Shown here in pieces: positions 25,741-62,068 of a stretch of 64,000 nucleotides of DNA. Source of the DNA: Cryomorphaceae bacterium 1068 (GTDB lineage Bacteria; Bacteroidota; Bacteroidia; Flavobacteriales_D; Cryomorphaceae); the NCBI GenBank assembly GCA_027214385.1, contig JAPVXR010000001.1:1-64000 (forward strand), read 5' to 3'. The stretch's first letter is position 1. Every line of letters starts with the position of its first letter. A program made the translations under genes and the position numbers. Below the pieces are notes generated by a model, which worked only from the letters and a program-made list of their open reading frames with translations, searched no databases and was not told the DNA's origin.

Positions 25741-27348
25741 ATGCCTGAATCAAAGCCAAGAATAGCCTATTTCTGCATGGAATATGGCCTCGATGATAAA
25801 TTGAAAACATACGCAGGTGGTCTCGGAATATTAGCGGGAGACTACATGAAAGGAGCCAAAGACCACAATTTTCCAATTGTGGGTTTGGGGCTTAAATGGA
25901 AGCAAGGTTATACCGATCAATACATTGACAAAGACGGTCAACCGTACGATAGCTACAAGAATCAAAACTATGATTTCTTGGAAGATACCGGAGTTACGGT
26001 TTCTGTTACTATTCGTCAGCGCGAAGTTTTCGTGAAGGTTTGGAAATGTGATTCATTTGGAAATGCGCCACTTTATCTACTTGATACCGACATTCCTGAA
26101 AACGAAGACGCATGGATTACCGGTCAACTTTACGGTTGGTTTGGTGAAGAGCGTATTGCTCAGGAAATGGTTCTCGGTGTAGCAGGTGTTAGAGCCTTGC
26201 GCGCACTAGGAATTGACGTAGATCTTTATCACTTTAACGAAGGACACGCTCTTTTTGCCGGATTTGAACTCGTTCGCGAAAAGCGTGATGCAGGTAAGTC
26301 ATTTGACGAAGCACTGGATGCGAGCCGCGAAGAAATCGTTTTCACAACGCACACACCTGTTGTACAAGGAAACGAATCACACACCATTGATCGCCTCATG
26401 TACATGGGTGCGAATATGGGAATGACAGTTGAACAAATGGTGAGCCTCGGTGGTGCACCTTTCAATATGACCGTAGGAGCACTTAGAATGTCTAAGAAAG
26501 CAAATGCCGTTGCACAACTTCACGGAGAAACAGCTCAGAAAATGTGGGCACACGTTGAAGGTGGTTCTGAAATAGTTCCCATTACCAATGCCATCCACCG
26601 GCCAACGTGGGTAGATTCTGCAATGACAGATGCCGCCGAAGGAAAGGGCGATATTTGGGAAAGCCACATGAAGAATAAGCGAGCGCTTGTTGATTTTGTG
26701 AAAGAACGAACAGGAGCTGAGTTGAAGGAAGATGTTCTGACTTTAGGGTTTTCAAGAAGAGCGGTAGCTTATAAAAGAGCCAATTTGCTTTTCCGCGATC
26801 CTGAGGTAATAGATCCGCTTTTGAAAGAGGGAAAATTACAAATCGTGTATTCAGGAAAAGCGCACCCATTGGATGATGGCGGAAAGCAATTGATTGCTGA
26901 GATTGTTGGTTTTTCTAAAAAATACCCTCACGCTGTTGTCTACATTCCAAATTACGATATGGCAACGGGGTCAGCCCTCACCAGAGGATCTGATGTTTGG
27001 TTAAACAATCCGCGTCGCCCGAAAGAAGCGAGTGGAACTTCAGGAATGAAGGCAGCGATCAACGGTGTGCTGAACTGCAGTATTCTAGATGGATGGTGGC
27101 CTGAGGCTTGCGATCATGGTAAGAACGGATGGCAATTCGGAGATGCCTTTGTGGGAGTAACTGAGGCTGAGCACGACAAGCATGATGGTGATGCACTTTA
27201 CAAAGTCCTTTTGGATGAAGTAATCCCTACTTTTTATAACGACCGCGATAAGTGGGTAAGCATGATGAAGCAGAGTATTCTTGACTGTAAAGATCAATTT
27301 GCCGTTAAGAGGATGCTCGAAGAGTATTACGATCTTTTGTACGTATAG
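25741..27348 (+). CDS. glgP: Alpha-glucan phosphorylase, short form
   Basis: This 535-aa GT35 enzyme releases glucose-1-phosphate from glycogen or maltodextrin. It is of the short type known from thermophiles and Bacteroidota (classical GlgP exceeds 800 aa). Visible motifs are FCMEYGLDDKLKTYAGGLGILAGDYMK at the start, HFNEGHALFAGFEL, THTPVVQGNESH, YKRANLLFRDP and, near residue 430, EASGTSGMKAAINGVLNCSILDGWW, which holds the PLP-binding Lys. No other glycogen gene is present. It ends in a strong terminator. Confidence 0.93.
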   Translation: MPESKPRIAYFCMEYGLDDKLKTYAGGLGILAGDYMKGAKDHNFPIVGLGLKWKQGYTDQYIDKDGQPYDSYKNQNYDFLEDTGVTVSVTIRQREVFVKVWKCDSFGNAPLYLLDTDIPENEDAWITGQLYGWFGEERIAQEMVLGVAGVRALRALGIDVDLYHFNEGHALFAGFELVREKRDAGKSFDEALDASREEIVFTTHTPVVQGNESHTIDRLMYMGANMGMTVEQMVSLGGAPFNMTVGALRMSKKANAVAQLHGETAQKMWAHVEGGSEIVPITNAIHRPTWVDSAMTDAAEGKGDIWESHMKNKRALVDFVKERTGAELKEDVLTLGFSRRAVAYKRANLLFRDPEVIDPLLKEGKLQIVYSGKAHPLDDGGKQLIAEIVGFSKKYPHAVVYIPNYDMATGSALTRGSDVWLNNPRRPKEASGTSGMKAAINGVLNCSILDGWWPEACDHGKNGWQFGDAFVGVTEAEHDKHDGDALYKVLLDEVIPTFYNDRDKWVSMMKQSILDCKDQFAVKRMLEEYYDLLYV

Positions 27349-27371
27349 TTAGAGAGCAACCATTAATGTTT

Positions 27372-27404
27372 AAAGCCGTTTCCCTCAGGAAGCGGCTTTT
27401 TTAT
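27372..27404 (+). terminator. Intrinsic terminator of the glucan phosphorylase gene
   Basis: AAGCCG-TTCC pairs with GGAA-GCGGCTT around CTCA, with one bulged base, and is followed by TTTTTTATTT. Confidence 0.85.
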
Positions 27405-27702
27405 TTCCTACTTGATTCCAGAATAGACCTCAATTATTGACTGTAGACTAAAATACTTCTGATTGGTAAGCGAATTTCGCTGCAGACAGGAGTGAATATT
27501 TTTATCAGAAATAATGCTAGTGAACAAAAAAATTCGATGAATACAGATTTTCGATCGATGAATTTTTTGAGTGTGATTTTTAGAAACAAGCTTTTTGCAT
27601 TTTCCAGATCTATAATTTGCTTCAACAATATTGATTATCATGGTAATATGACTTTTTCTCCCATGCAGTTGTTGTTGAAAAAAAAAGAACTTTGAATAAT
27701 TG
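27405..27702. other. AT-rich intergenic stretch with nothing recognised
   Basis: No coding frame with family similarity and no RNA gene were seen here. The control elements of the next gene begin at about 27703. Confidence 0.5.
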
Positions 27703-27738
27703 CGTTTCGACAAAACATAAAATAATGTCGACGAAACG
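27703..27738. promoter_or_regulatory. Inverted repeat over the -33 region (possible operator)
   Basis: CGTTTCG (27703-27709) and CGAAACG (27732-27738) form a 7-bp inverted repeat with 22 bases between; TCGAC and GTCGA lie inside it. The right arm touches the -33 TTG of the following promoter, so a bound protein would affect initiation. Confidence 0.4.
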
Positions 27739-27768
27739 TTGAAAAGCGATTAATAATGGGTAAATTTG
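27739..27768 (+). promoter_or_regulatory. Promoter of the 2135-aa T9SS cargo gene
   Basis: TTG (27739-27741), 19 bases, then TAAATTTG (27761-27768) is a textbook Bacteroidota -33/-7 promoter. Transcription should begin near 27775, about 98 bases before the ATG. Confidence 0.75.
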
Positions 27769-27776
27769 ATTATTCG

Positions 27777-27812
27777 TAAGCCTAAGAAGTTATTAACATA
27801 TCGATAGGCTTA
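27777..27812 (+). repeat. Stem-loop at the extreme 5' end of the cargo mRNA
   Basis: TAAGCCTA (27777-27784) pairs perfectly with TAGGCTTA (27805-27812). It would begin within a few bases of the predicted transcription start, the position of known 5' mRNA-stabilising hairpins. Confidence 0.5.
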
Positions 27813-27872
27813 GAAAAGTTTTGTGATCGAAATTTCAAATTAACATTAATTCTAAATCTAAAATTTAACCAA

Positions 27873-30800
27873 ATGAAAACAGATGCTACACTTAAGTCGG
27901 ATGTGCTGACTAAGGTGATGAATCGAGCGGTTAATTGTAGTCTTTTCCTAACCAAAGGAATGTTGATTGCAATGACTTTGCTTTTCTCATCTACCTTTAT
28001 TTTCGCCCAATCCGGTTCTAATGGTGATGAACCATTAGTAATTGTTAAAAAGGGATACTATCCGGGAGATGGAGTTGTTCCTGCTGAGGTTCAGGCACTC
28101 ATATCTGAGTATGCTGCCCAGCAGTCGTCCATCGGTACTTTGGGCGATACAGAGCCCACAGGAACACCACCTACAATTGAAAATTGTCCTGCAGATCAAA
28201 CAGTAGAATGTTTTGGTGATGTTGGTCATACTGCTTCAGAATTGGAGTATACAATCAATTGTGGTCCTAACGGTATCATTATTATATATGAGCCGCCTGG
28301 AGTGCTTATTACCGGTTCTTGCCCCGGAACAGAATATGTAGTGACATATGATGTTTGGGACCAGTGTGGCAATAATGTGACTTGTGATCAAATCTTTACC
28401 ATTGATAATCCTGGTCCTGAGATTACATCTTGTCCGGAAGGTGGGATAATTGAAACGCCTGATCAAGCGGTTTCTGATGTAGATGCAGTTGAGTTTACAT
28501 TCTCATGTCCTGATGATCCTCTTTGCTCTGAAATCACCGTGGATGTTGAATACACTGAGGATAATGATCCTTGCATGGGCGACATGTACATCTACACTTA
28601 CACCGTCACTGATGGTTGTGGAAGAACAGATGAGTGTCAGCAGATTTTTACAATACCACCGCCCGAGCTGGAAATAGTATGTAGCGATTCTGAAGTTGTA
28701 GAATGTGCTTCAGATATTACTCCATCTGAAGATGATGTGGAAGTAATTGGAGCTATTGAAGGAGTTGAAACCAACGTAATGGTTGGAATTCCAATGTTAG
28801 TGAGCGGAGATGCAGGCTGTTCAGGAGCTGTTTATGAAGTTTCATATATGGTGACTGACGAATGTGACCGCACTGCGTCTTGCACCAGAACATATACATT
28901 AGACAATGATGGTCCGACTATCACGGCTCCTGATGATGTGACAATAGAATGTGCATCTGATGCTGCTGAAAATATTGATGGAGTTTCTTTTACTACATCA
29001 TGCGAGCTTGGCGGAGTTGTTACGGCTTCAGAAATTATTCTAGTTGAAGGCAACGGAACCTGTGTTGGTTCGGTTTGGAAGTATATTTATACTGTAACAG
29101 ATGCTTGCGAACGTACGGCTACTGATGAGCAGTTTGTAACTATTTTCAATGAAGGCCCATCTATAGTAGTACCTGACGATGCTGATCTTGAATGTGGTGA
29201 CTCAACTGATCCCTCAGAAACAGGAACAGCAACAGCTTCTGACCCTTGTGAGGGAGAATTGGAAGTGTTCTTTGAAGATGCGGTTGTTTCTGAGTCGTGC
29301 CCTCAAGTGATTGAGAGAACTTGGTCGGCGATGAACGGATGTGAAGTAATGGTAAGTGGTGTTCAAACCATCACAATTGTAGATGAAGAGGCTCCCGTGT
29401 TTGATTTAGATTGTCAGTTTGACTTTGATTTATTGACGAGCGAGGGTGCAGATTGCCCCGCAGAAGCTGGATTCAGCTTTGAAGAAGGCGATGAGTTCCC
29501 TGTTACTCAAGGATACAGCATAGCTGGAGTTGATATTCTTCCGTTGTTTGGTTGCGTAACAGATAATTGCACTTCAGATGAGGACATTGTGATTCGTGTA
29601 GCGTCAATCACCGAAGAAGGTGATGGGTGCAGCAAGAGCTTTACTGTGGACTTCGAGGCTCTTGATGAATGTGAAAATGTAGGTGGTGGTTTTTCTTGTA
29701 ACTACACTGTTACAGATGATGAAGCTCCTGTATTGAATATGCCTGATGTAACGGAAGCAGATGTAACTTGTTCTGATCTTCCAGTGGAAGATGCAATTGG
29801 TTTTGCAGAAGGGACTCTTAGTCCTGAAGAAGAGGCTGCATTCTTGGCGCAGGCATCAGCACTTTTTGTAGACTTAGGATTGATTCCTGAAGGAGCTGAA
29901 GATAGCTGCGGAGATGCAGAGTGGAATGAAATTGATATTTCTGCTGTCGTTCCTGATCAAACATGCCCGACTCTAGTGGTTTTATCCTGTGTATTTGTAG
30001 CAGAGGATGAGTGTGGTAATGTTTCGGAGCCAGCAAGCACGAGCATTGCTATTGTAGATAATACCCCTCCGGTTATTTCTTGTCCAATGAACATTTCTGT
30101 ATCCTGTGAAGATGGAGATTCTCCTGATGTAACGGGAATGGCAATGGCTACCGATGATTGCTCAGAAGCAGAAATTACATTTGAGGATGTTGTTGTATCA
30201 GACGGATGTCCTACGATTATTGAAAGAACATTTACAGCAACAGACGGGTGTGGACTTACTTCATCTTGTGTGCAGGAAATCACTATCACCTTCGATGTAC
30301 CAACTATCACAGCACCTGAAGATGTAATCATCGAATGTGCTGCGGATGCAGCTGCTGATATTGAAGGAGTAACCTTTACCACCGTGTGCGAACTCGGTGG
30401 AGAGGTAACCGCAGAAGGTCCGATCCTATTAGAAGGTGATGGACTCTGTGACGGTTCACTTTGGGAGTTTGTGTACACGGTAACTGATGATTGCGGAAAT
30501 ACGGCAAGTGCTTCACAACAAGTGACGATTTCTAACGAAGGTCCCACTATCATGGCTCCTGAAGACGTAATCATCGAATGTGCTGCAGATGCAGCTGCTG
30601 ATATCGAAGGAGTTTCATTTACAACTTCTTGCGATTTTGGTGGAGAAGTAACGGCAGAAGGCCCGATTCTATTAGAAGGAGACGGGTTCTGTGACGGTTC
30701 ACTTTGGGAGTTTGTATACACGGTAACCGATGACTGCGGCCGCACAGCAAGTGCTTCCCAGATGGTAACGATTGAAAACGACGGTGCTTCCATTATGGTA

Positions 30801-33800
30801 CCGGAAGATGTTACGATCAGTTGTGAAGAGTCCACCCTTCCTGAGAATACTGGAATGGCCGTGGCCTCAGAGGCATGTGCAGGAGAACTTGACGTAACTT
30901 ATGAAGATGAAATACTGGAAGAATCCTGTCCATTAGTGATCCAGCGAACCTGGTCATCAGAGTCAGAGTGTGGCGGAACGTTAACAGGAGTTCAGATCAT
31001 CACGGTAGAGGATAACATTCCTCCCGTTTTGAACATGCCTGATGTAACGGAAGCAGATGTAACTTGTTCTGATCTTCCGTTGGAAGATGCAATTGCTTTT
31101 GCAGAAGGGACACTTAGCCCGGAAGATGAAGCTGAATTCTTGGCAGAAGCAGCGGCACTCTTTGTTGAACTAGGTTTGATTCCTGAAGGCGCAGAAGACA
31201 CTTGTGGTGATGCTCAAGTTGTAGAAGTAGGTATTGAAGCAGTCGTGTCCGAAGATTGTCCGGTTCTTGTAGAACTTACATGCATCTTTGTAGCAGTTGA
31301 CGATTGTGAAAATGTATCGGAACCTGCGGCTACAAGTATTTTCATCATCGATAATACTGCGCCCGTAATCACTTGTCCAGACGATATTTCCGTTGCATGT
31401 GAGGAAGGAACTTCTCCAGACGTAACGGGGATGGCTACAGCCACTGACGATTGTTCAGATGCAGAGGTTACATATGAAGATGTAGTCGTTTCTGAAGGAT
31501 GTCCTATGATTATCGAACGAACGTTTACCGCGACAGATGGTTGTGGGTATACTTCGACTTGTACACAGATAATTACCGTTACTTATGAGATGCCGACGAT
31601 AGTGGCACCTGAAGATGTGATCATCGAGTGTGCGGCTGATGCTGCTGCAGATATTGAAGGTGTAATAAGCACAACTGCTTGTGACCTTGGTGGAACAGTT
31701 ACTGCAGAAGGTCCGATTCTTTTAGAAGGAGACGGTTTCTGTGATGGCTCACTTTGGGAATTTGTTTACACAGTGACTGATGGTTGCGGAAGATCTGTTT
31801 CGGATTCGCAATTGGTAACGATCGAGAACGCAGGACCATCTATTGAAGCTCCGGATGATATAGAGGTGATCTGTATAGACGATTATGTAGCAAATGCAGA
31901 TGATGCAACAGTGATGGTTGCTTGTGACTTTACATCAGAGGTAGTTGTTAGCGACCCTGTTCTCATCGAAGGACAAGGTTCGTGTAATTTGACTCAGTAT
32001 GAGGTGACTTATACGGTTACTGATCAATGTGATAGAGAATCGTCAGATGTACAAATCGTTACTTGTGTGAATGATGGTCTCGACATTTTTGAAACCCCTG
32101 ATGATGGTATCGTAACTTGTTATGAAGATATCGTTCCTGACCCATGGGGTATCGAGTACTTCTCTCCTTGTAGTTCTGATGTATTTATCCAGGTTACGCC
32201 TCCTACGCAGCTTTGCTGTACTGAGGATTGCCCTGGAGCACAATATGTTGTTGTCTACACCATCACAAATGATTGTGGTGATGAAGAAGTGATTGAGCAG
32301 ATCTTTACGATTGAAAATGAAGGTCCGACAATTATCACTTGTGGTGAGAATGAAATGGTAGAATCAGTTGAAGATATCGTAGTTTCTGTTGACGATGTTG
32401 AGTATGTAACTGCTTGCGGAATCGACTGTGATGTCGCAGTGGTATCTGAACCCGAAGTAGTCGACAACGGCTGTTCAGGAACAGATTACATCTATACTTA
32501 CACTATCACGGATAATTGTGGAAGAACAGCAACTTGTGAAAGAGTGTTCACTATTCCTAGTGATGATCCGACATGTGATCTTGATGATGACTGTAACTCC
32601 TTCACGACTTACTATGCTGACATAAGCGGTGGTCAAACTACGCTCTACAGTGTGGAATTCACTGCTACAGAAGCATTGCTGACATACGAAACAGATGTGG
32701 ACTTCAGTGCACACATTGCTTTTGATGCTGTGAATGACGTTGTTTACTTAGTGAACTCTAATGGTTCCTCAATTCTGGCATATGATCCATCTACGGATAC
32801 AGAATTGTTTGAGCTTACAATTGGTGGAAGCATTAACCAGTTGTTTGCTGTGGTATACAACCCGATGGATCAATTGATCTATGTAGGAGATGCGAACGAT
32901 GACGAAATTTACACGATTGATCCTTTGGGATTAGGTGATGCGAATTTCTTTGCCGAAGGACCTGTTGAAGGTGGAGATCTCGCGATTCAAGACGGTACCT
33001 TGTACTTGGTGAATCGTGGAAATACAAACCTTTATGAATTCGTTGATAACGGAGGAGGGCCTGAAGCAGTTCTAGTCGCGGCTACAGATAGTCCTGAAAT
33101 CAGTGGTATGGCACAGGCCAACAACTCAACCGACCTGATTCTTTCGAATGCAGGTTCAGCGAACTTTACGAAAGTGAATGCCTCTAATGGTATGACTGAG
33201 AAAGTATATATCGCGATGTTGGGTGAAGACATGTTTGAGTTGGCTGATGGTGGTGATATGGCTGCAGGTTGTGCAAACAACTTCGGTATTGAGCCTTGCA
33301 GCTACCGTTTGTACTACACGCACAACCCAGAGGGTTCAAGCGACTACAGCTTGCTTCAGGTTGAGTTAGATGCATTAGGAAATGCGACCTACACAACTTT
33401 GTTGGAAGACTTGGGTAGTTCTCATATCGGTTTATCGAATGATGGTTCTGAAATCTACATGGTTGGAGGAAGCAATGTTCAGACTTACAATGTCGAGTCA
33501 GGGTTAATCACTAATAATGTGAATATCTTCAACGGAGCGAACCAGTCCAACTTGTCGAGCTTCCCTGCTGCTGTAGTTGGTCCGGACAATCAATTGTTCA
33601 TTGCCGGTGCAGGAAACAACGTTTGGGAATGTGATCCTGTAACGGGAGAAGCTACGAACGTTGCGACGGGCATCAATGTGAATGGAGGAGACTTGATCTT
33701 CGCACCTACGGGAGAAGAAGGAGCTGAAGAGCTTTGGATTATCACCCGTAATAATGGAACCTTCACAAGAGTTCTTGACCCTGGTAATGGAGCCTTTAGT

Positions 33801-34280
33801 GTAGATGTTCCGGAAATCAATGGTGCGGCAGTACTAGAGAACGGAAATGTGCTTCTAGCTGATGGAGATGGTAATAGCCTGCTTAAAGAAGTGAGCTTAG
33901 CCACTCAGGAAGTTGTAGCAACATATGACATAGACCTACCATTGTACAATGGAGATCTAGCTGGTGGATGCACAGGAGAAGAAGAGACGGTTTCAATTGC
34001 CGTTGCTGACGAGCTGTTGTCATTCCCATCTCAAGTATACCCTAATCCTTCTGTGGATAATGCTGTGATTACTTTCGAGCCTGTAGAAAATGTACGGACT
34101 CAGGTTGATCTATTTGACTTGTCAGGTAGACCATTAGAATCACTCTTCAATGCAGAAGTGAAGTCAGGATTGGAATACCGAGTGAATGTGAATACAAGCG
34201 CATTCGAAAACGGTATCTATATCTACAGAATCACAAACGGTTCACACCAAGTGACCAAGAAGTTGATGGTTGTAGATTAA
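27873..34280 (+). CDS. Giant T9SS-exported cysteine-rich repeat protein with probable beta-propeller
   Basis: This encodes 2135 aa. The signal sequence has a long polar start and the core GMLIAMTLLFSSTFIFAQ (about 29-46). Residues about 100-1570 are a string of roughly 80-residue immunoglobulin-like modules with paired Cys and phrases such as YTVTDDCGRTAS and ATDDCS, close to HYR/PKD-type repeats. The modules fall into classes A, B, C and D that recur in a higher-order pattern. Residues about 1575-2040 look like a beta-propeller (HIAFDAVNDVVYLVNSNG, LIYVGDANDDEIYTIDP). From about 2052 a type A sorting domain begins with VYPNPSVDNAVITF and ends KKLMVVD. The protein is strongly acidic and probably a cell-surface or released adhesin-like structure. 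Its binding partner is unknown. Confidence 0.88.
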   Translation: MKTDATLKSDVLTKVMNRAVNCSLFLTKGMLIAMTLLFSSTFIFAQSGSNGDEPLVIVKKGYYPGDGVVPAEVQALISEYAAQQSSIGTLGDTEPTGTPPTIENCPADQTVECFGDVGHTASELEYTINCGPNGIIIIYEPPGVLITGSCPGTEYVVTYDVWDQCGNNVTCDQIFTIDNPGPEITSCPEGGIIETPDQAVSDVDAVEFTFSCPDDPLCSEITVDVEYTEDNDPCMGDMYIYTYTVTDGCGRTDECQQIFTIPPPELEIVCSDSEVVECASDITPSEDDVEVIGAIEGVETNVMVGIPMLVSGDAGCSGAVYEVSYMVTDECDRTASCTRTYTLDNDGPTITAPDDVTIECASDAAENIDGVSFTTSCELGGVVTASEIILVEGNGTCVGSVWKYIYTVTDACERTATDEQFVTIFNEGPSIVVPDDADLECGDSTDPSETGTATASDPCEGELEVFFEDAVVSESCPQVIERTWSAMNGCEVMVSGVQTITIVDEEAPVFDLDCQFDFDLLTSEGADCPAEAGFSFEEGDEFPVTQGYSIAGVDILPLFGCVTDNCTSDEDIVIRVASITEEGDGCSKSFTVDFEALDECENVGGGFSCNYTVTDDEAPVLNMPDVTEADVTCSDLPVEDAIGFAEGTLSPEEEAAFLAQASALFVDLGLIPEGAEDSCGDAEWNEIDISAVVPDQTCPTLVVLSCVFVAEDECGNVSEPASTSIAIVDNTPPVISCPMNISVSCEDGDSPDVTGMAMATDDCSEAEITFEDVVVSDGCPTIIERTFTATDGCGLTSSCVQEITITFDVPTITAPEDVIIECAADAAADIEGVTFTTVCELGGEVTAEGPILLEGDGLCDGSLWEFVYTVTDDCGNTASASQQVTISNEGPTIMAPEDVIIECAADAAADIEGVSFTTSCDFGGEVTAEGPILLEGDGFCDGSLWEFVYTVTDDCGRTASASQMVTIENDGASIMVPEDVTISCEESTLPENTGMAVASEACAGELDVTYEDEILEESCPLVIQRTWSSESECGGTLTGVQIITVEDNIPPVLNMPDVTEADVTCSDLPLEDAIAFAEGTLSPEDEAEFLAEAAALFVELGLIPEGAEDTCGDAQVVEVGIEAVVSEDCPVLVELTCIFVAVDDCENVSEPAATSIFIIDNTAPVITCPDDISVACEEGTSPDVTGMATATDDCSDAEVTYEDVVVSEGCPMIIERTFTATDGCGYTSTCTQIITVTYEMPTIVAPEDVIIECAADAAADIEGVISTTACDLGGTVTAEGPILLEGDGFCDGSLWEFVYTVTDGCGRSVSDSQLVTIENAGPSIEAPDDIEVICIDDYVANADDATVMVACDFTSEVVVSDPVLIEGQGSCNLTQYEVTYTVTDQCDRESSDVQIVTCVNDGLDIFETPDDGIVTCYEDIVPDPWGIEYFSPCSSDVFIQVTPPTQLCCTEDCPGAQYVVVYTITNDCGDEEVIEQIFTIENEGPTIITCGENEMVESVEDIVVSVDDVEYVTACGIDCDVAVVSEPEVVDNGCSGTDYIYTYTITDNCGRTATCERVFTIPSDDPTCDLDDDCNSFTTYYADISGGQTTLYSVEFTATEALLTYETDVDFSAHIAFDAVNDVVYLVNSNGSSILAYDPSTDTELFELTIGGSINQLFAVVYNPMDQLIYVGDANDDEIYTIDPLGLGDANFFAEGPVEGGDLAIQDGTLYLVNRGNTNLYEFVDNGGGPEAVLVAATDSPEISGMAQANNSTDLILSNAGSANFTKVNASNGMTEKVYIAMLGEDMFELADGGDMAAGCANNFGIEPCSYRLYYTHNPEGSSDYSLLQVELDALGNATYTTLLEDLGSSHIGLSNDGSEIYMVGGSNVQTYNVESGLITNNVNIFNGANQSNLSSFPAAVVGPDNQLFIAGAGNNVWECDPVTGEATNVATGINVNGGDLIFAPTGEEGAEELWIITRNNGTFTRVLDPGNGAFSVDVPEINGAAVLENGNVLLADGDGNSLLKEVSLATQEVVATYDIDLPLYNGDLAGGCTGEEETVSIAVADELLSFPSQVYPNPSVDNAVITFEPVENVRTQVDLFDLSGRPLESLFNAEVKSGLEYRVNVNTSAFENGIYIYRITNGSHQVTKKLMVVD
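29725..31850 (+). repeat. Internal segmental repeat with 431-432-codon offset
   Basis: Block B-C-A (about 29725-30540) recurs at about 31021-31835. A shared 42-base stretch begins at 29741 and 31037 (offset 1296 bases), and the start of module A recurs at 30312, 30555 and 31605 (offsets 243 and 1293 bases). All offsets are whole codons. Confidence 0.8.
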
Positions 34281-34298
34281 GCTGATTAATTTATCTTG

Positions 34299-34337
34299 AA
34301 AAACCCCGTCTCAAATATTTTGAGACGGGGTTTTTTA
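34299..34337. terminator. Bidirectional-looking terminator after the 2135-aa gene
   Basis: AAAACCCCGTCTCAAA pairs with TTTGAGACGGGGTTTT around a 3-base loop, with a T-run on the plus strand and A-run on the other side. It separates the giant gene from the carboxypeptidase gene. Confidence 0.85.
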
Positions 34338-34386
34338 TTGGACACGTGTGAAAATTAGCTCTACTTTTAGATCCTAATTCTAGTTC

Positions 34387-36714
34387 ATGCTTAAAAGAAT
34401 ACTTTTAATTCTATCCCTGGTTCCCGCCGCGCTTTTTTCTCAGAGTTCAATAAATGAAGCAGTTCTCTACAATGGTGAAGCTCATGTTTCAATTCTCAAA
34501 TCAGAGATTAAAGATTTAGAGAAATTAGAGAATGTACTTTATATCGATGAGCACTTCTCGGATGAAGAGACATTTCAAGCAATTGTAACTCTCCCACAGC
34601 TTCAAGATTTCATTGACTTGGGCGTTAACTACACCGTTTTGGATCACCCCAATAAAGCTGTTGAGATTGAAATGATCGATCTCAAAACTTACAATCAAGC
34701 AAAGAGCACAGACTGTGGTACTTTTTTGACAGGATACCCATCCTATGACTTATACGAGCAAATGATGTTCGATTTTGCAATTGACTATCCTGAAATATGT
34801 CGCTATGAAGAAATAGAAACGCTTCCGAGTGGAAGAAAGCTATTAGCTGTAGTAATCTCAGATAATCCAGACGAAGTCGAAGATGAACCTCGATTTCTGT
34901 ACACCTCTAGTATTCATGGAGATGAAACTGCCGGTTATATGTTGATGATGCGAATGATTCAAGATATTCTTTGCAATTATTCGTCTGATGCTCAAGTAGC
35001 GAATCTGGTTGATAATGTTGAGATTTGGATAAATCCTTTGGCAAATCCAGACGGTACTTATGCTTTGGGAAACAATACATTAAACGGGGCGAGGAGAACC
35101 AATTCTAATTTTGTCGATCTCAACCGAAATTACCTCGATCCCGACGATGGTGCTAATCCGGACGGCAATCCCTATCAGGACGAGACTATCGCTTTTATGG
35201 AGCTTGCAGAAGATGTTCATTTCGATATGAGCAGCAATATGCATGGGGGAGTGGAAGTGGCAAATTATCCTTGGGATACTTGGTCATTTCTGCATGCAGA
35301 TGATGATTGGTGGGTACACGTTTGTCGGCAGTACGCCGATACCGCTCAGGAAAATTCACCATCGGGCTATTTCAATTTTCTCGACAATGGAATAACAAAT
35401 GGATATGCTTGGTATTCTGTGGCAGGAGGTCGTCAAGACTTTATGACCTATTTTCATCATGGTCGAGAATTGACTTTAGAGCTGAGCGATCAGAAATTAC
35501 TCTCTACTTCTCAATTTGACAATTTTTGGAATTATAACAGGAGCGCTCTTTACAATTATATGGAGCAATCTCTTTTCGGATTAAGGGGCATCGTGACCGA
35601 TGCGAACACCGGCGAGCCTATTGTCGCCAATGCCTATATCTTCAATCATGATATGGAGAATTCCGATGTTTATTCAAGATTGCCAAATGGAAATTATCAC
35701 CGCTATTTGCATGAAGGTTCTTACGACGTTACCTTTTCTGCTGATGGTTATCAGTCGCAAACCATCACCGTAAGCATTGAAAATGATGAATCGACTTTAC
35801 TAAATGTGGCTTTGATGCCTGATAACGTCTGCGATGTAGTGGCAGGGTCAATCTCTACTTTCAGTGCTCTTTCAAATCTTTGTGCAGGGGATAATTCACC
35901 TGATTTAATAGAGGTCGATGTTCAGGGAAACGTTGGTTTCGCTGGTGTTTTTGGTATTGTAGATCAAGCAAACAATGTGATGGGCTCTTCGCAGTCGGGA
36001 AATTTTAATGTCAACAACCTGTCGTCGGGTACGTATAGAATCAAGCATATGACTTATGCTCAAGGGGTTAATCCTTCCGTTTCGAATGCATCAGAGTTAG
36101 AAGGATGTTATGCACTTTCTAATAGTATCTTTTTCAGTGTGAATAGGGTAGAAGGTGGAGTGATTTCAACCAATGAGTCGACACAGGTATGTGGTGACGA
36201 TGGCCAGCCATCCACGATCAACTTTGTGTTAGTCGGTGCAGAAGGAGCAAATTCAAAGTGGGCCGTTCTCAACTCCGGTTTTACCGAAGTCATTTCGTCT
36301 GCGAATAGCCCCGAATTCAACTTTGATAATTTTGGATCAGGTGTTTATCGCGTCGTTCATGTTTCCTATTCAAATGGTGTTAATCTCGGCGAAGTAGATC
36401 CGCAGAATATCCAAGGCTGTTTGGACGTTTCTAACACGCTTACGATTACAGTCCAAAACTGTGCCTCAAACCTTACCCAATATACTTCCGGCCCTAATGC
36501 GTCGATACTCTTTACACCTGAAGTGCACGGAGATTATCAAGTGCAACTTTTGGATTTGAACGGACGTGTTTTGATGGATCTTTATTCAGGTGTATCAGAG
36601 GCAAACCGAGAGTTGCGATTGGACTTGAATACGACCCGTTTGGCGGCAGGAATTTATCTGATTCGAGCCATTGGAGGGGAGTCTTCAGAGATGAAGAAAA
36701 TTATGATTGAATAG
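34387..36714 (+). CDS. T9SS-exported M14 zinc carboxypeptidase
   Basis: This encodes 775 aa with a signal peptide (RILLILSLVPAALFSQ). The M14 catalytic domain spans about 110-390: zinc ligands in SSIHGDETAGY (His and Glu near 177-180), the NPDGT and RRTNSNFVDLNRNY substrate blocks, the third zinc His in SSNMHGG (about 284) and the catalytic Glu in TLELSDQK (about 364). A carboxypeptidase regulatory-like domain (LRGIVTDANTGEPIVANAYI) follows at about 395-475, then two Cys-containing repeats of about 100 residues, and a T9SS sorting-type C-terminus (VQLLDLNGRVLMDLYSG ... KKIMIE). It should act outside the cell on peptides. Its stop overlaps the convergent transporter gene by 14 bases. Confidence 0.92.
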   Translation: MLKRILLILSLVPAALFSQSSINEAVLYNGEAHVSILKSEIKDLEKLENVLYIDEHFSDEETFQAIVTLPQLQDFIDLGVNYTVLDHPNKAVEIEMIDLKTYNQAKSTDCGTFLTGYPSYDLYEQMMFDFAIDYPEICRYEEIETLPSGRKLLAVVISDNPDEVEDEPRFLYTSSIHGDETAGYMLMMRMIQDILCNYSSDAQVANLVDNVEIWINPLANPDGTYALGNNTLNGARRTNSNFVDLNRNYLDPDDGANPDGNPYQDETIAFMELAEDVHFDMSSNMHGGVEVANYPWDTWSFLHADDDWWVHVCRQYADTAQENSPSGYFNFLDNGITNGYAWYSVAGGRQDFMTYFHHGRELTLELSDQKLLSTSQFDNFWNYNRSALYNYMEQSLFGLRGIVTDANTGEPIVANAYIFNHDMENSDVYSRLPNGNYHRYLHEGSYDVTFSADGYQSQTITVSIENDESTLLNVALMPDNVCDVVAGSISTFSALSNLCAGDNSPDLIEVDVQGNVGFAGVFGIVDQANNVMGSSQSGNFNVNNLSSGTYRIKHMTYAQGVNPSVSNASELEGCYALSNSIFFSVNRVEGGVISTNESTQVCGDDGQPSTINFVLVGAEGANSKWAVLNSGFTEVISSANSPEFNFDNFGSGVYRVVHVSYSNGVNLGEVDPQNIQGCLDVSNTLTITVQNCASNLTQYTSGPNASILFTPEVHGDYQVQLLDLNGRVLMDLYSGVSEANRELRLDLNTTRLAAGIYLIRAIGGESSEMKKIMIE

Positions 36715-38014
36715 ATTCTTCTTTCGGCACTGCCAAAAGAAAAATAATACCAACTACGAAGATGGCTCCAATCGCCAGCACGGAATGGCGCAGATTACCG
36801 GTTAATTCAAAGATTAATCCGAAAGCCAATGTGCCGACTACGGTTCCTATTTTATCAGAAACATCGTAAAAGCTGAAATAAGAAGCATGGTCCAATGTGG
36901 TTTGAGGTAAGAACTTTGAGTAAGTACTGCGGCTTAAAGCTTGAATTCCTCCCATTACAAACCCTACGATTCCTGCAAGTACATAAAATTCGACGGGGGT
37001 AGTGATTTTGAAAGCCATCACACAAATTCCTATCCAGATGGTTACAGCTGTTAACAGGGCTTTTAGATTGCCATATTTAGAACTCAGCCAAGAGTGAAAG
37101 TAAGCGCCTATTATCGCGATGAATTGGATAATGAGAATGCTGATGATTAATCCCTCATCGGGCATTCCGGCAATTTCATTTTTAGCAAATCCAACCGCCA
37201 TGTACATCACTGTTTGGACACCCATGTTGAAGACGAAAAATGAAATCAGGTAGCGTTTCAATCTGGTAGTTTTTTTAAGCTCGTTCCAAACCTTTCTTAA
37301 TTCCACATAACCGCGGTAGAGATACTCCCCTTTTACTTTTTTGCCATACACATTGCCAGGCAAGCGGCTGAATGTGACTTGTGCAAAGCCAATCCACCAA
37401 ATACCAACCATCGCAAAAGAAACACGCGCAGGCATATCTCCATCGCTAAAACCGAATACTTCGGGATTCATAATCATGAATAGATTGACGATAAGCAATA
37501 TGATGCTACCGATGTATCCGAGTGAAAAGCCCTTAGCGCTCACGCTGTCTTGTCGGCCGATGGACGCTATTTCAGGTAAATAGGCATTGTAAAAAACCTG
37601 GCTCCCCGAATAGCCGATTCCCGCCATCATAGTCATCAGCAAGCCAAAGCCCAAAAAATTTGCATCGAAGAAGAAAAGCCCAACACAGGCCAGGCCTCCC
37701 AAGTAGCAGAAGAACTGCATAAATCGCTTTTTCTGCCCTGAATAGTCGGCTATACCCGAAAGTAGGGGCGAGATCAACGCGACAATCAGAAAAGATGCGG
37801 AAAGAGTGTAGGAATAGAGTGCCGTGTTTTTAAATGTACGACCAAGTAACTCCACTTCAGAGGTGGTGTTATTCTCAAAAAAAATGGGGAAGATAGACGA
37901 AGTGATGACAAGTGAATAGACCGAATTGGCCCAGTCGTACATGGCCCATCCATTTATTGTTTTCTCGTCATCTTTGGTTATGGCACTGTTAAGCGCCCCT
38001 TCGGCCATTTGCAT
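36701..38014 (-). CDS. UMF1-family MFS transporter (Atg22-like)
   Basis: This 437-aa membrane protein has about 12 hydrophobic spans. The N-terminus GWAMYDWANSVYSLVITSSIFP is the hallmark of the UMF1/Atg22-like group of the major facilitator superfamily. GIADYSGQKKRFM in the first loop corresponds to the MFS loop 2-3 motif. The substrate is unknown; yeast Atg22 exports amino acids from the vacuole. An ATG two codons further in (38008) is an equally good start. No transport partner lies nearby. Confidence 0.88.
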   Translation of the reverse strand: MQMAEGALNSAITKDDEKTINGWAMYDWANSVYSLVITSSIFPIFFENNTTSEVELLGRTFKNTALYSYTLSASFLIVALISPLLSGIADYSGQKKRFMQFFCYLGGLACVGLFFFDANFLGFGLLMTMMAGIGYSGSQVFYNAYLPEIASIGRQDSVSAKGFSLGYIGSIILLIVNLFMIMNPEVFGFSDGDMPARVSFAMVGIWWIGFAQVTFSRLPGNVYGKKVKGEYLYRGYVELRKVWNELKKTTRLKRYLISFFVFNMGVQTVMYMAVGFAKNEIAGMPDEGLIISILIIQFIAIIGAYFHSWLSSKYGNLKALLTAVTIWIGICVMAFKITTPVEFYVLAGIVGFVMGGIQALSRSTYSKFLPQTTLDHASYFSFYDVSDKIGTVVGTLAFGLIFELTGNLRHSVLAIGAIFVVGIIFLLAVPKEESIQS

Positions 38015-58159: not shown

Positions 58160-61100
58160 CTACTGCATTAAAAGTCTTACTGACTCACGGCTTTCACCTT
58201 TCAGCACTTCTACCACGTAGATGCCGTTTCCAAGTTCATTCAAGTTCAGGTTAACATTGTTGAAGCCTTTATTGAAAGTGATTGCTTTCTCAAAGGCTAG
58301 TTTTCCTTGTGCATCAAATACTCGGATGAAGGCTTGTCCTTCAGACAATGAGTTGTAAGACAAGCTTACATTATCCTGTGCAGGGTTTGGAGCTACACGT
58401 ACCCAAGATCCGGAAGATGCCATATCGAATAATTGGCCAACGATATTTTCGCTGAGATTGCTGTTATTCCATTGTGCATCAGGATCAACTTGAGAAAGAG
58501 GGGTGTCAGTATAACCCGTACCCATTTCTTCAGTGATCACTGGCGGAGCATAGAATGCTTGAGCGTAGTTAGTGTAAGGTCCTACAACAAGTGGGCCTTG
58601 TGAACATCCACATCTTACTCTAAAGTTGTACGTGGTAAATGGAACTAGCTGACCTAGAGGAGCCGTAAATGAACTCGCTGAAGCTCCTGCTCTTACGACA
58701 GTGGCTTGCTGAGGTCCTGTTCCAACAACGATATTGATCTGGCAACCAATTTGTCCTGGTACTGGCTCCCATTCAAAACGAAGTTTTCCATTCGGAAGCA
58801 CAGTCGACGTAAGGCTCGATTGATCAACAGCAGGGAATGGATTTGCACAACCAGACTCGCAGTCTAGAGAAACGGTGATGTCACCAGCGTCAAAATAGGC
58901 GAATGTGCGTACATAGTAAGTTCCTGCAGCAGGAGCTTCCAAAGTTATACCTTCTCCGGAACCAGCACTTAAACCAGTGTCTGAACAAGCGACTTCCGTT
59001 AAGCTTCCACAATCTCCGGAGTAGATAAAAAGGACTCCATCAATTAGAGACCCTTCAGCAGGTAAAACAGTTACTGTATAATTGTCAGAACCGTTAGCTT
59101 GGAATGTATACCATACATCTTCAGGAGTAGTCGATGCAAAACCGTTACAAAGATTATTTAGGCCTTCCGTAGCGCTGGCGCCTACTGTAGTGCCTTCGAT
59201 TGTAGTTCCGCAAGCAATATCAGTCGCTCCTTCGCAGTTGTCATTAGCTGGCACTACTATGCCACCACCACAAGAACAGTCTTCTTGGATCGTCTCTCCT
59301 TCTGTCAATGGGTCTCCATCGTCACAAGGGTCACCAATGTTTCCATCAGGACAGTCAGTACCGCAAGTGAGGCATTGAACGGTTGTTTCAACACAATCTG
59401 TAGCTTGACCACAAGCTGCGTCTGTATTCCAGTGTGCAAAGAGGTCTGAACCACTTGCACCTGATACCGTAACCGGAGACGTTCCTTGAGCTACAACAGC
59501 TCCGTTTGCAGAGTCAGATCTTACTGTAATGTAACCTCCTTCTACAATAGAAAACTCAATGTCTTCACCCGCAGAAACTCCGGTAATCGTAGAATACTCA
59601 GTTTGGAATGAACAAGTGCTGATTGTTACCAGATTATTTGCTTCAGTACTTAAATCAGCAGAACCGAAAGCATCTTCATTCAAACAGTCACCCGTAAGCG
59701 GCTGACCTGCACAAACGCAGTCTTCACCAATCACATCTCCAACGGTATTCTCGTCACCATCATCGCAAGCATCACCGATGTTTCCATCAGGACATTCAGT
59801 TTCGCAAGAAACACACTGAACTGTTGTTACAACACATTCAGCAAGAGTGCCACACGAGTCGTCCGTATTCCAGTGAGGATAGAGATCAGCACCGCTTGCG
59901 CTTGCTACCGTCAATGGACTAGGGCCTTCCGCTACGATAGGACCAGTTGCTGAATCACTGCGCACAGTGATGTACCCTCCATCGCCATCTGCATCAAGAG
60001 TGAATTCGATGTCTTCTCCTACAGGAACTCCTGTAATGGTAGAATACTCTTCTTCGTAAGAACAGGTAGAGATAGTGATCAACTGACCGTTCGGTCCTTC
60101 AACGCTAATGTCAGCGCTACCGAAAGCAGCGTCATTCAGACAATCAGAAGAAGGTATACCTCCAAAGGCTACATCATCCCAAAGGTAAATCTGCTCAGGA
60201 GCTGGGTTTACCTGGTCAACATTAAAGTTGAAGAAAAGACTTACGATGTTGAAATCAGCATTTACGTCAACAGGAACAAGCGCATCAACACTAAAGTCAA
60301 AAAAGATGGTTTCCCATTCTCCTGAAGTTGTAGTTGTGAGCTCTTTCTCAGCTACCAATCCCGGTGATCCTGTTGCCTCGAGTTTCATGCGAACGGGAAT
60401 TCCCACTTCAGGAGACCACACTCTCACACTCATAGTCGTTTCACCTGCTTCAAATGGAATGCGATTGGTTAATCCACCAGCCGGAACCGTAGTCCCCGCA
60501 AAGAATGCAGCACCTTCCGTACGAATGGACTGAACTACATTGTTTCCTGCATCTTCAGGATCAGGAATGATGGTAGATTCGTTTCCACCAAAATCAATCA
60601 AACCAAAAGTTACATCCGGTGTATCAAAATCGATAGGAAGTGCGGTAGGAATGAATCCTCCTACGCCTGGCGCGAAGTCCACATCATCCCAGAAGTACGT
60701 CTGTTCGGGTGTAAGACCGGGATCAGCTCCGAAATTGAAGAAGATCGTTGGCAAGTTGTAAACTAAATCCAAATTCAAACTACCGGCTGTCGGCTGAGCA
60801 AAGTCAAATTCCAACGTTTCCCAAGCACCACTAGTCGTGGTAAGAACATCTTTTTCTACAAATATTCCAGGGTTTCCAACTTGTTCTATTTTAAGTTTCA
60901 CGATAACACCTGCTTCAGGTGACCACACTCTTGCAGACATTCCTGTATTGTCAAAGTCAAACGGAATAGGCTCTTCAAGCCCCAAGGGCTGGCCAACTGT
61001 AGTTCCTGCAAAAACTGCAGCACCTGCTGTTCTGATTGTCTGAACAGCGGTATTTCCGGCATCCTCCGGATCAGCAACGATCGAAGAGACAGTTCCTCCG

Positions 61101-62068
61101 AAATCAGTCAAACCGTAATCCAACGTTTCATCTTCAAAGTCAATCGGAAGAGCGACTTGTGAAGGAGGCTCAATATCACTCATCACAAGCTCGATGTCGT
61201 CAAACTGGAAAGTGAAGTTTGGTGTTCCATCACCCACTACACCAAGGTCCCAAATCAAAACGATTCTGGAATACTCGTTGCCTGTATTGATTGCACTGAA
61301 ATCAAATTCAAGTGTTTCCCATTCGTTTGCAACTGTTGATGTGTCTTCCTTCTCGAAGAAGATCCCGGAATTACTTGCATTTTCAACCTTTAGAAGCACA
61401 CGTGCGCCAGATCTTGGAGAGTAAACTTTCATTTTGAAAAGTTTATTCTCTGAAAAGTCGATAGGGCTATCCAATGGAAGGACACTTCCACCAAAGACAT
61501 CTCCTGGCCCTTTTACCATTTGCGCTACGGTAGCACTTGTGTTTATTCCCGAAGGAGTAGGGTTCGGAATTACAGAAGAAAATCCACCTGCGAAGTTTTC
61601 AAAGGCATAATCTGCTGTCGTTGATTCGAAATCAACCGGCAATACCACCGGATCGGGAGGTATGATACCACAGTTTTCTCCTACAGTATAGGTCAATTCC
61701 TCACCTCTGGAAAATCCACCCGCAAAATTCCATTGGATTCTGCACGTAAATGTATCTCCATCGGTGAAACCTGGAAAGTCTGCGCTTACTTCTTGCGAAC
61801 CACCCATTGCCACAACTGTTGTTTCGGAAAAATCAGGGTTGAACGTTTGGAAAATACCTACTAAACCTATCTGTGGGTCAAGTAGTTCGAAAGTAGCAGT
61901 TACAACTCCGCCACTTGTGGAAAAGTTGTAATTGTAGCCATTGACGAATGGGGTTCCCCCGTCGATGGCATTATTTGCGGTTAGTGTTCCGGAACACTCT
62001 GTGTTCTGGGCCCAGCTGAATGATGCCACAAGGAGCAACATCGCTGATAGTAATGATCTAATTTTCAT
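58160..62068 (-). CDS. Modular T9SS-exported protein with three jelly-roll-like domains (long paralog)
   Basis: This encodes 1302 aa with a signal peptide (SLLSAMLLLVASFSWAQ). After an N-terminal domain with two Cys, three related modules of about 160 residues start near 143, 307 and 476 (pattern LPIDFE...DYGLTDFGG...FAGTTV...RVWSPEAG...TSGEWETLEFDF), like carbohydrate-binding jelly rolls. Two Cys-rich repeats of 154 residues start near 638 and 792, with the linker CPDGNIGDACDDGD. Next comes a pre-peptidase-like domain (NDNCEGATDIACGTTIEG, about 939), a fibronectin-like domain (about 1073-1170), and a type A sorting domain from about 1222 (VRVAPNPAQDN). No catalytic site was seen. It probably binds surface glycans. 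Confidence 0.88.
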   Translation of the reverse strand: MKIRSLLSAMLLLVASFSWAQNTECSGTLTANNAIDGGTPFVNGYNYNFSTSGGVVTATFELLDPQIGLVGIFQTFNPDFSETTVVAMGGSQEVSADFPGFTDGDTFTCRIQWNFAGGFSRGEELTYTVGENCGIIPPDPVVLPVDFESTTADYAFENFAGGFSSVIPNPTPSGINTSATVAQMVKGPGDVFGGSVLPLDSPIDFSENKLFKMKVYSPRSGARVLLKVENASNSGIFFEKEDTSTVANEWETLEFDFSAINTGNEYSRIVLIWDLGVVGDGTPNFTFQFDDIELVMSDIEPPSQVALPIDFEDETLDYGLTDFGGTVSSIVADPEDAGNTAVQTIRTAGAAVFAGTTVGQPLGLEEPIPFDFDNTGMSARVWSPEAGVIVKLKIEQVGNPGIFVEKDVLTTTSGAWETLEFDFAQPTAGSLNLDLVYNLPTIFFNFGADPGLTPEQTYFWDDVDFAPGVGGFIPTALPIDFDTPDVTFGLIDFGGNESTIIPDPEDAGNNVVQSIRTEGAAFFAGTTVPAGGLTNRIPFEAGETTMSVRVWSPEVGIPVRMKLEATGSPGLVAEKELTTTTSGEWETIFFDFSVDALVPVDVNADFNIVSLFFNFNVDQVNPAPEQIYLWDDVAFGGIPSSDCLNDAAFGSADISVEGPNGQLITISTCSYEEEYSTITGVPVGEDIEFTLDADGDGGYITVRSDSATGPIVAEGPSPLTVASASGADLYPHWNTDDSCGTLAECVVTTVQCVSCETECPDGNIGDACDDGDENTVGDVIGEDCVCAGQPLTGDCLNEDAFGSADLSTEANNLVTISTCSFQTEYSTITGVSAGEDIEFSIVEGGYITVRSDSANGAVVAQGTSPVTVSGASGSDLFAHWNTDAACGQATDCVETTVQCLTCGTDCPDGNIGDPCDDGDPLTEGETIQEDCSCGGGIVVPANDNCEGATDIACGTTIEGTTVGASATEGLNNLCNGFASTTPEDVWYTFQANGSDNYTVTVLPAEGSLIDGVLFIYSGDCGSLTEVACSDTGLSAGSGEGITLEAPAAGTYYVRTFAYFDAGDITVSLDCESGCANPFPAVDQSSLTSTVLPNGKLRFEWEPVPGQIGCQINIVVGTGPQQATVVRAGASASSFTAPLGQLVPFTTYNFRVRCGCSQGPLVVGPYTNYAQAFYAPPVITEEMGTGYTDTPLSQVDPDAQWNNSNLSENIVGQLFDMASSGSWVRVAPNPAQDNVSLSYNSLSEGQAFIRVFDAQGKLAFEKAITFNKGFNNVNLNLNELGNGIYVVEVLKGESRESVRLLMQ

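What the first reader, a model, noticed from the sequence alone, without database searches (positions are those of the whole stretch)
27873..34280. Higher-order A-D-B-C module repeats in a 2135-aa T9SS cargo protein
The protein is not a simple tandem array. Module classes recur in order: A (about residue 352), D (432), a linker, B (618), C (729), then A, A (814, 895), D (976), B (1050), C (1160), A (1245). The B-C-A block is repeated at an offset of 431-432 codons, with a 42-base identical stretch at 29741 and 31037. This implies unequal recombination of multi-domain units, and points to copy-number variation between strains and to a long fibre-like surface structure. B modules (MPDVTEADVTCSDLP... 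with SPEEEAAFLAQ) do not resemble known HYR or PKD repeats.
Basis: partly seen in the sequence, partly recalled or inferred. Interest (0 to 1): 0.65.

Follow-up and report, generated by a model that had tools for sequence, protein, structure and literature searches.

The report
Shuffled Ig-module rod, type IX-secreted
This gene encodes a long, probably rod-shaped protein that the bacterium likely displays on or releases from its surface; it is built from 17 immunoglobulin-like modules in a partly repeated order, and the odd "B" module looks like the same fold with an extra helical hairpin.

Summary
The 2135-aa ORF at 27873-34280 has a B-C-A block repeated at 431-432 codons (64-76% aa identity; score 989 against at most 59 in five shuffles), with a 44-bp identical stretch (29739/31035). 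Two interpretations change. First, B matches no Pfam model, but its C-terminal half aligns with C/D and an AlphaFold2 model of D-B-C (pLDDT 92) gives B its neighbours' strand layout plus a two-helix hairpin where they have a short helical turn. Second, the block duplication is old (dS 1.4-2 for B and C pairs), so strain-level copy-number variation is not implied; the collections hold one genome per species, so it could not be tested. Between species the middle of the stalk differs (17 against 24 modules), N1-N3 stay orthologous, and the C-terminal domains change (two propeller-like domains here). Most likely a type IX-secreted, cysteine-rich, acidic, fibrillar-adhesin-like rod. New variant of a known kind; function inferred only.

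The parts
27873..28172 (+). N-terminal 100 residues: signal-peptide-like region (by eye) and a short conserved leader (..IV...YPG...)
   Evidence: leader aligned in 3 relatives
28173..28418 (+). module N1 (82 aa, 6 Cys)
   Evidence: one clade over 4 genomes, 100/98
28419..28664 (+). module N2 (82 aa, 6 Cys)
   Evidence: one clade over 4 genomes, 100/99
28665..28916 (+). module N3 (84 aa, 5 Cys)
   Evidence: one clade over 4 genomes, 100/98
28917..29159 (+). module A, first copy (81 aa, 4 Cys)
29160..29396 (+). module D, first copy (79 aa)
29730..30071 (+). module B, first copy (114 aa); hairpin expected at 29784-29810 and 29823-29873 by position against the modelled second copy
30072..30302 (+). 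module C, first copy (77 aa)
30303..30545 (+). module A, second copy
30546..30788 (+). module A, third copy (86% aa identical to the one before)
30789..31025 (+). module D, second copy (49% identical to the first)
31026..31364 (+). module B, second copy (113 aa, 75% identical to the first); modelled helices at 31080-31106 and 31119-31169
31365..31595 (+). module C, second copy (74% identical to the first)
31596..31838 (+). module A, fourth copy
31839..32081 (+). module A2
   Evidence: counterpart in G003 by place (44% identity), not resolved in the tree
32082..32327 (+). module A3 (6 Cys)
   Evidence: pairs with G003 A3, 97/86
32328..32570 (+). module A4, last before the C-terminal domains
   Evidence: pairs with G003 A4, 91/82, below the tool's star level
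32598..33281 (+). beta-propeller-like domain 1
   Evidence: model
33291..33974 (+). beta-propeller-like domain 2 (26% identical to domain 1)
34035..34271 (+). type IX secretion C-terminal sorting domain (PF18962 / TIGR04183)
29739..29782 (+). 44-bp stretch identical to 31035-31078, at the start of B
31035..31078 (+). 44-bp stretch identical to 29739-29782
34387..36714 (+). downstream M14 carboxypeptidase with the same kind of C-terminal signal; a neighbour, link to the rod not shown

Best explanation
A T9SS-exported, cysteine-rich, strongly acidic rod of 17 HYR/Ig-like modules that ends in two beta-propeller-like domains and a C-terminal sorting signal, working like a fibrillar adhesin. Shown by computation: the tiling, the T9SS signal, the machinery genes, the predicted Ig-like fold of D, B and C, the propeller-like C-terminus, and a between-species difference in number and order of the middle modules with conserved N-terminal modules. 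Inferred: that the protein is exported by the T9SS; that cysteines pair within modules; that its C-terminal end sits at the membrane (as in Porphyromonas gingivalis, where the mature C-terminus is modified and attached), so that N1-N3 are the outer end; that it binds a surface or another cell; and that B modules are protruding knobs five modules (432 residues) apart. The block arose by an old duplication, with later single-module gain (A-A) and gain or loss of L.
For: Por_Secre_tail 1.2e-10 and TIGR04183 1.3e-11; T9SS sortase 1288 bits and SprA 2554 bits in the genome, both over cut-off; exact tiling and 4-7 Cys per module; net charge -17.1 per 100 aa and 4.4% Cys, against -3.0 net charges per 100 aa over the other 32 ORFs that I picked out of the window (range -10.8 to +7.1); D-B-C model pLDDT 92, pTM 0.71, PDB matches are Ig-like, cadherin and bacterial adhesin domains, such as SraP at Z 7.9, 189 aligned, rmsd 7.2; propeller matches Z 14.9, 209 aligned, rmsd 3.5; G003 homologue of 2615 aa with 24 modules and a C-terminus in which only the sorting domain matches this one.
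Against: No known adhesive domain was matched; binding is untested. All but the best few Z values of the D-B-C matches lie below 8, where the tool warns that a common arrangement may be all. Anchoring was not tested; the protein may be released. The D-B-C model rests on 13 sequences and covers 3 of 17 modules. Foldseek TM-scores are low (query-normalised 0.19-0.40 in the 50 rows listed). Conservation within B is not concentrated in the hairpin: 11 of 35 invariant columns fall in 35 of 115 columns.
Confidence: 0.6

Rival explanations
1. A periscope-type protein whose repeat number changes quickly between strains by recombination, to tune how far the outer end reaches.
For: Between-species counts differ: A modules between N3 and the first D or D2 module are 1, 4, 2 and 1 in G000, G003, G007, G006; one adjacent pair here is 86% identical and 2 of 8 adjacent pairs in the G007 fragment reach 80%; a 44-bp identical stretch is longer than nearly all shuffles give; the G007 fragment has exact repeats up to 78 bp.
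Against: Only 1 of 16 adjacent pairs here, 0 of 23 in G003 and 0 of 4 in G006 reach the 80% identity used to find periscope proteins (threshold from PMC8201768 passages); B and C pairs have dS 1.4 and 2.0; the longest exact repeat here is 44 bp.
Confidence: 0.15
2. A soluble secreted protein (for example one that binds polysaccharide with its propellers), not a surface fibre.
For: Two propeller-like domains close to the C-terminus; related propeller domains in 1-4 copies in other proteins of the family; not all T9SS cargo stays on the cell (established knowledge).
Against: Length and tiling by 17 cysteine-rich Ig-like modules are typical of spacers; nothing here tests release.
Confidence: 0.3
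3. Module B is an unrelated fold inserted into the array.
For: No Pfam match at E up to 10 for either copy; no convincing PDB sequence match, best E 0.056 to an unrelated cytochrome; profile comparison with A modules is weak (E 0.005, probability 7%).
Against: Same strand order as D and C in a confident model; profile alignment of its C-terminal half with C/D (E 1.8e-4, probability 49%); a B-like module in G224 lacks about 20 residues of the insertion.
Confidence: 0.05

Closest known systems
HYR_4C (Pfam PF23237), HYR-like domain with 4 cysteines
   Same: Five stretches of this protein match it; A modules have four cysteines
   Different: Of the nine modules scanned alone, both B, L, N3 and the first D give no HYR_4C match, and A, C, N1 and N2 stay below its cut-off; B carries a predicted two-helix insertion and a fifth Cys
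Fibrillar-adhesin-like proteins (stalk plus adhesive domain)
   Same: Long array of stalk-like modules with an export or anchor signal; 124 such proteins with Por_Secre_tail are reported, mostly in Bacteroidetes (PMC8286594, passages)
   Different: No recognised adhesive domain; stalk of several module classes in a partly repeated order
Periscope proteins (SasG, Rib, Sgo_0707)
   Same: Tandem domains forming a probable rod
   Different: They have highly identical repeats and strain-level length variation (PMC8201768, passages); here 1 of 16 adjacent pairs reaches 80%
SraP ligand-binding region of Staphylococcus aureus (PDB 4m00)
   Same: Array of small beta domains; Z 7.9 over 189 residues, rmsd 7.2
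   Different: 17% identity, Gram-positive; the match is of general arrangement and says nothing about the hairpin

Membership tests
T9SS type A cargo | C-terminal Por_Secre_tail domain above the curated cut-off | tested here: met
   41.9 bits against cut-off 27; 44.3 against 23
T9SS type A cargo | T9SS machinery in the same genome | tested here: met
   T9SS sortase 1288 bits, SprA 2554 bits, both over cut-off; other components not searched
T9SS type A cargo | secretion by the system, signal cleavage and C-terminal modification | not testable with these tools
   reported for Porphyromonas gingivalis (PMC4560394, abstract)
HYR_4C (PF23237) | whole protein above curated cut-off | tested here: met
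   29.8 bits against 27, five stretches; G003 homologue 174.3 bits, 12 stretches
HYR_4C (PF23237), module B | match of the isolated module to the model | tested here: not met
   0 families at E up to 10 for both copies
Ig-like/HYR fold, module B | beta-sandwich strand order shared with neighbouring modules | tested here: met
   AlphaFold2 model, B at model residues 80-192: E80-82, E88-91, helices 98-106 and 111-127, E134-137, E142-153, E159-171, E180-187, against D and C with a like run of strands and a 4-residue helix; predicted, not solved
Periscope protein | tandem repeats over 50 residues with at least 80% identity | tested here: inconclusive
   1 of 16 adjacent pairs, A-A at 86%
Periscope protein | repeat number differs between strains | not testable with these tools
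   one genome per species held; between-species difference seen
Fibrillar adhesin | known adhesive domain | tested here: inconclusive
   only HYR_4C and Por_Secre_tail are over cut-off; the propellers give a sub-threshold SGL match

The most novel reading that the evidence does not exclude
B is an HYR derivative, found mainly in this family, whose helical hairpin is the working part: a sticky or ligand-binding knob placed at a fixed five-module spacing along a rod, with its neighbours (D before, C or D after) acting as its fixed socket, so that the higher-order arrangement exists to space the knobs and not just to add length.
Probability: 0.2. Interest if true: 0.5.

Novelty: new variant of a known kind. 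Interest (0 to 1): 0.33.

Why it matters
It gives a concrete case in which the N-terminal end of a T9SS rod is kept while its middle is reshuffled and its C-terminal domains are changed between species, and it names an Ig-like module (B) with a predicted helical-hairpin insertion that matches no Pfam model. That makes module B and the N1-N3 head testable pieces for asking what these very long Bacteroidota proteins bind.

Tried and rejected
Idea that the mixed order exists to keep neighbouring modules unlike each other: rejected. Mean neighbour identity is 0.348 against 0.343 in 5000 shuffles of module order (3007 as low) in G000, and 0.380 against 0.367 (3801 as low) in G003.

Idea that modules cluster by genome (concerted evolution) over the array: not supported; 17 label changes against a shuffled mean of 18.5, as low in 45 of 200. 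That count includes N1-N3, which sort by place. Two G003-only A subtypes do form clades (100/100 and 99/97).

Idea that the hairpin is the best conserved part of B: not supported; 11 of 35 invariant columns in 35 of 115 columns.

B as a known family: no Pfam for either copy, no convincing PDB sequence; NCBIfam on the whole protein gave the sorting domain and two families that match through it. A-module profile against PDB sequences: three weak matches, E 0.024-0.085. Viral structure library: many Ig-like and tail proteins with low TM-scores, not informative. PHROGs and PADLOC were not scanned.

Promoter and terminator scans of 27300-36800 gave no more sites than shuffles (18 against 21.8; 7 against 5.8).

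Paper searches: 'HYR domain' + type IX + Bacteroidetes 0 papers; 'HYR domain' + Bacteroidetes 3 papers; HYR_4C 0 papers; searches showed nothing on these proteins in the titles and abstract starts listed. PMC9210967 was searched by six terms only, 0 hits. The library holds open-licence papers only.

Ortholog in the sister species G001: one contig ends inside the phosphorylase gene and another starts inside the M14 gene, so absence there cannot be read as loss.

The trees are of short domains; the bootstrap had not settled for the first. and its like score only a capped number of candidates per genome.
Full report
Observation. The ORF and the repeat are real. The ORF at 27873-34280 (+) has 2135 codons before its stop. 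The DNA shows direct repeats at 1293-1296 bases (193 nt at 85%, 300 nt at 71%) and a tandem 243-bp pair. The protein has an offset-431 diagonal over residues 693-979 at 64% identity and an offset-432 diagonal over 612-695 at 76%; five shuffles reach at most 59 against 989. The identical stretch is 44 bp, at 29739 and 31035.

Anatomy. Cutting the protein at its recurrent junctions gives, without gaps: leader, N1, N2, N3, A, D, L, B, C, A, A, D, B, C, A, A2, A3, A4, then 569 residues of C-terminal domains. Every module here has 4 to 7 cysteines. The protein carries -17.1 net charges per 100 residues and 4.4% cysteine; the other 32 ORFs that I picked out of the 57 listed for the window average -3.0, with a range of -10.8 to +7.1.

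What the modules are. Pfam HYR_4C matches five stretches. A and C/D are homologous by profile comparison (E 1.3e-8, probability 96%). Its C-terminal half aligns with C/D (E 1.8e-4, probability 49%) and only weakly with A (E 0.005, probability 7%). An AlphaFold2 model of D-B-C, residues 973-1241, from 13 sequences has mean pLDDT 92.2 and pTM 0.71. D and C each show a 4-residue helix after the first strands (model residues 18-21 and 210-213); B has two helices at the same place (98-106, 111-127), then a like run of strands. So B is best read as an HYR/Ig-like module with a helical-hairpin insertion. A B-like module in G224 lacks about 20 residues of the insertion. Conservation is not concentrated in the hairpin: 11 of 35 invariant columns lie in 35 of 115 columns. 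Foldseek and VIA-align find Ig-like, cadherin and bacterial adhesin domains; the best VIA Z is 8.5 over 71 residues of D (rmsd 2.8), and SraP gives Z 7.9 over 189 residues, rmsd 7.2. The tool warns that Z under 8 may mean only a common arrangement.

C-terminal part. Residues 1567-2036 were modelled with 11 sequences (pLDDT 87.2, pTM 0.54): two all-beta domains of about 230 residues with a weak hinge at model residues 237-242. Domain 2 aligns to Keap1 kelch (Z 14.9, 209 aligned, rmsd 3.5) and domain 1 to TRIM2 NHL (Z 14.7, 188 aligned, rmsd 3.7). Related domains occur in one to four copies in other proteins of the family. The protein ends in a T9SS sorting domain, and the genome has T9SS sortase and SprA genes above cut-off.

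Relatives. G007 is split: one contig has N1-N2-N3-A-A-D-B-A-A and breaks off in a further A; another begins just before A4 and has one propeller domain followed by domains that look by eye like those of G003. That the two pieces are one gene is inferred. G006 breaks off in L. N1, N2 and N3 each form one clade over four genomes (100/98, 100/99, 100/98); A3 pairs between G000 and G003 (97/86), A4 less firmly (91/82), and A2 is unresolved. The A modules of the middle are mostly unresolved; exceptions are two G003-only subtypes and a clade of the A that follows B, twice in G003 and once in G007 (96/94), which suggests that B and the A after it were inherited together there. The number of A modules between N3 and the first D or D2 is 1, 4, 2 and 1 in G000, G003, G007 and G006. 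So the N-terminal end is kept, the middle is reshuffled and the C-terminal domains are changed between species.

Age of the duplication. Between the two B copies dS is 1.4, between the C copies 2.0, the D pair is saturated, and the adjacent A-A pair is younger at 0.80. The B copies here are 75% identical to each other; against G003 the three comparisons made (of four possible) give 49, 42 and 37%. The duplication is therefore younger than that split or has been homogenised. The 14-codon identical run at the start of B is reached in 10 of 20000 codon shuffles, and in 14 of 20000 when only same-residue codons are shuffled. That fits a short conversion or crossover tract at the junction, but selection on this stretch is not excluded. 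Only 1 of 16 adjacent module pairs reaches 80% identity, the threshold used for periscope proteins (PMC8201768, passages).

Spread of B. Of 399 genomes of the order searched with the B alignment, 32 matched at E 1e-4. Seven had a match below 1e-13 (G000, G001, G003, G007 in the family; G013, G165, G224 outside); G006, also in the family, adds a truncated one (7.6e-7). The other 24 were weaker (4.3e-7 to 9.4e-5), and 23 of their 24 best matches start at column 43 or later of 115, that is in the part shared with ordinary HYR-like modules. G002, G004 and G005 of the family had none. In 395 genomes drawn evenly over the phylum only the window's own matched at 1e-6. In the paralogues at G000:C17, G000:C23, G001:C67 and G003:C220 (the last read from L116), B lies between two D/C-type modules. 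The N-terminal block with its leader gave E below 1e-170 in 4 of 399 genomes; 7 others matched more weakly (9.3e-30 to 7.8e-11).

Mechanism. The most likely reading is a rod that works like a fibrillar adhesin. If, as in Porphyromonas gingivalis (PMC4560394, abstract), the mature C-terminus is attached to the envelope, the propellers lie near the membrane and N1-N3 form the outer end. At about 4 nm per Ig-like module (general knowledge, not computed) 17 modules would span some 60-70 nm. B hairpins would stick out of the rod every five modules. Export by T9SS is well supported by sequence; anchoring, binding and the role of B are inference.

Verdict. Observation confirmed; the interpretation needs two corrections (B is HYR-like by predicted fold; the duplication is old and strain variation is not shown). 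A new variant of a known kind, of moderate interest.

Noticed in passing
L123 (G000:C17), L088 (G001:C67), L093 (G006:C186), L091 (G165:C6): Proteins that carry B-like modules outside this gene also carry one or two copies of a ~150-aa domain with a DWDYFIFD-like motif (seen by eye); in L123 and L088 no Pfam family over its cut-off covers it. It co-occurs with B even in another family (G165).
   Followed up: no
window 58160-62068 and 62411-63940 (-): Two neighbouring ORFs end in nearly the same peptide (VLKGESRESVRLL), a likely shared C-terminal domain or local duplication.
   Followed up: no
G000:C1:645500-661500 (L124): An open frame reported as 5172 aa ends with three tandem propeller domains of the same kind.
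   Followed up: partly
G001:C45 end and G001:C78 start (L119, L120): In the sister species' assembly one contig ends inside the phosphorylase gene and another starts inside the M14 gene, so the rod gene's expected place is missing from it.
   Followed up: yes
window 29957-30835 (-): A 292-aa antisense ORF across the B-C-A-A-D modules, probably a shadow of the repeat's codon use.
   Followed up: no
window 27372-27399 and 34281-34386: A terminator-like hairpin follows the phosphorylase gene, and none was listed on the + strand between the rod gene and the M14 carboxypeptidase gene, so the two may be co-transcribed; the scan as a whole gave no more sites than shuffles.
   Followed up: no
L046 3259-4161 (-): An ORF that looks like an IS1595-type transposase (label recalled, not searched) lies upstream of the G007 homologue.
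   Followed up: no
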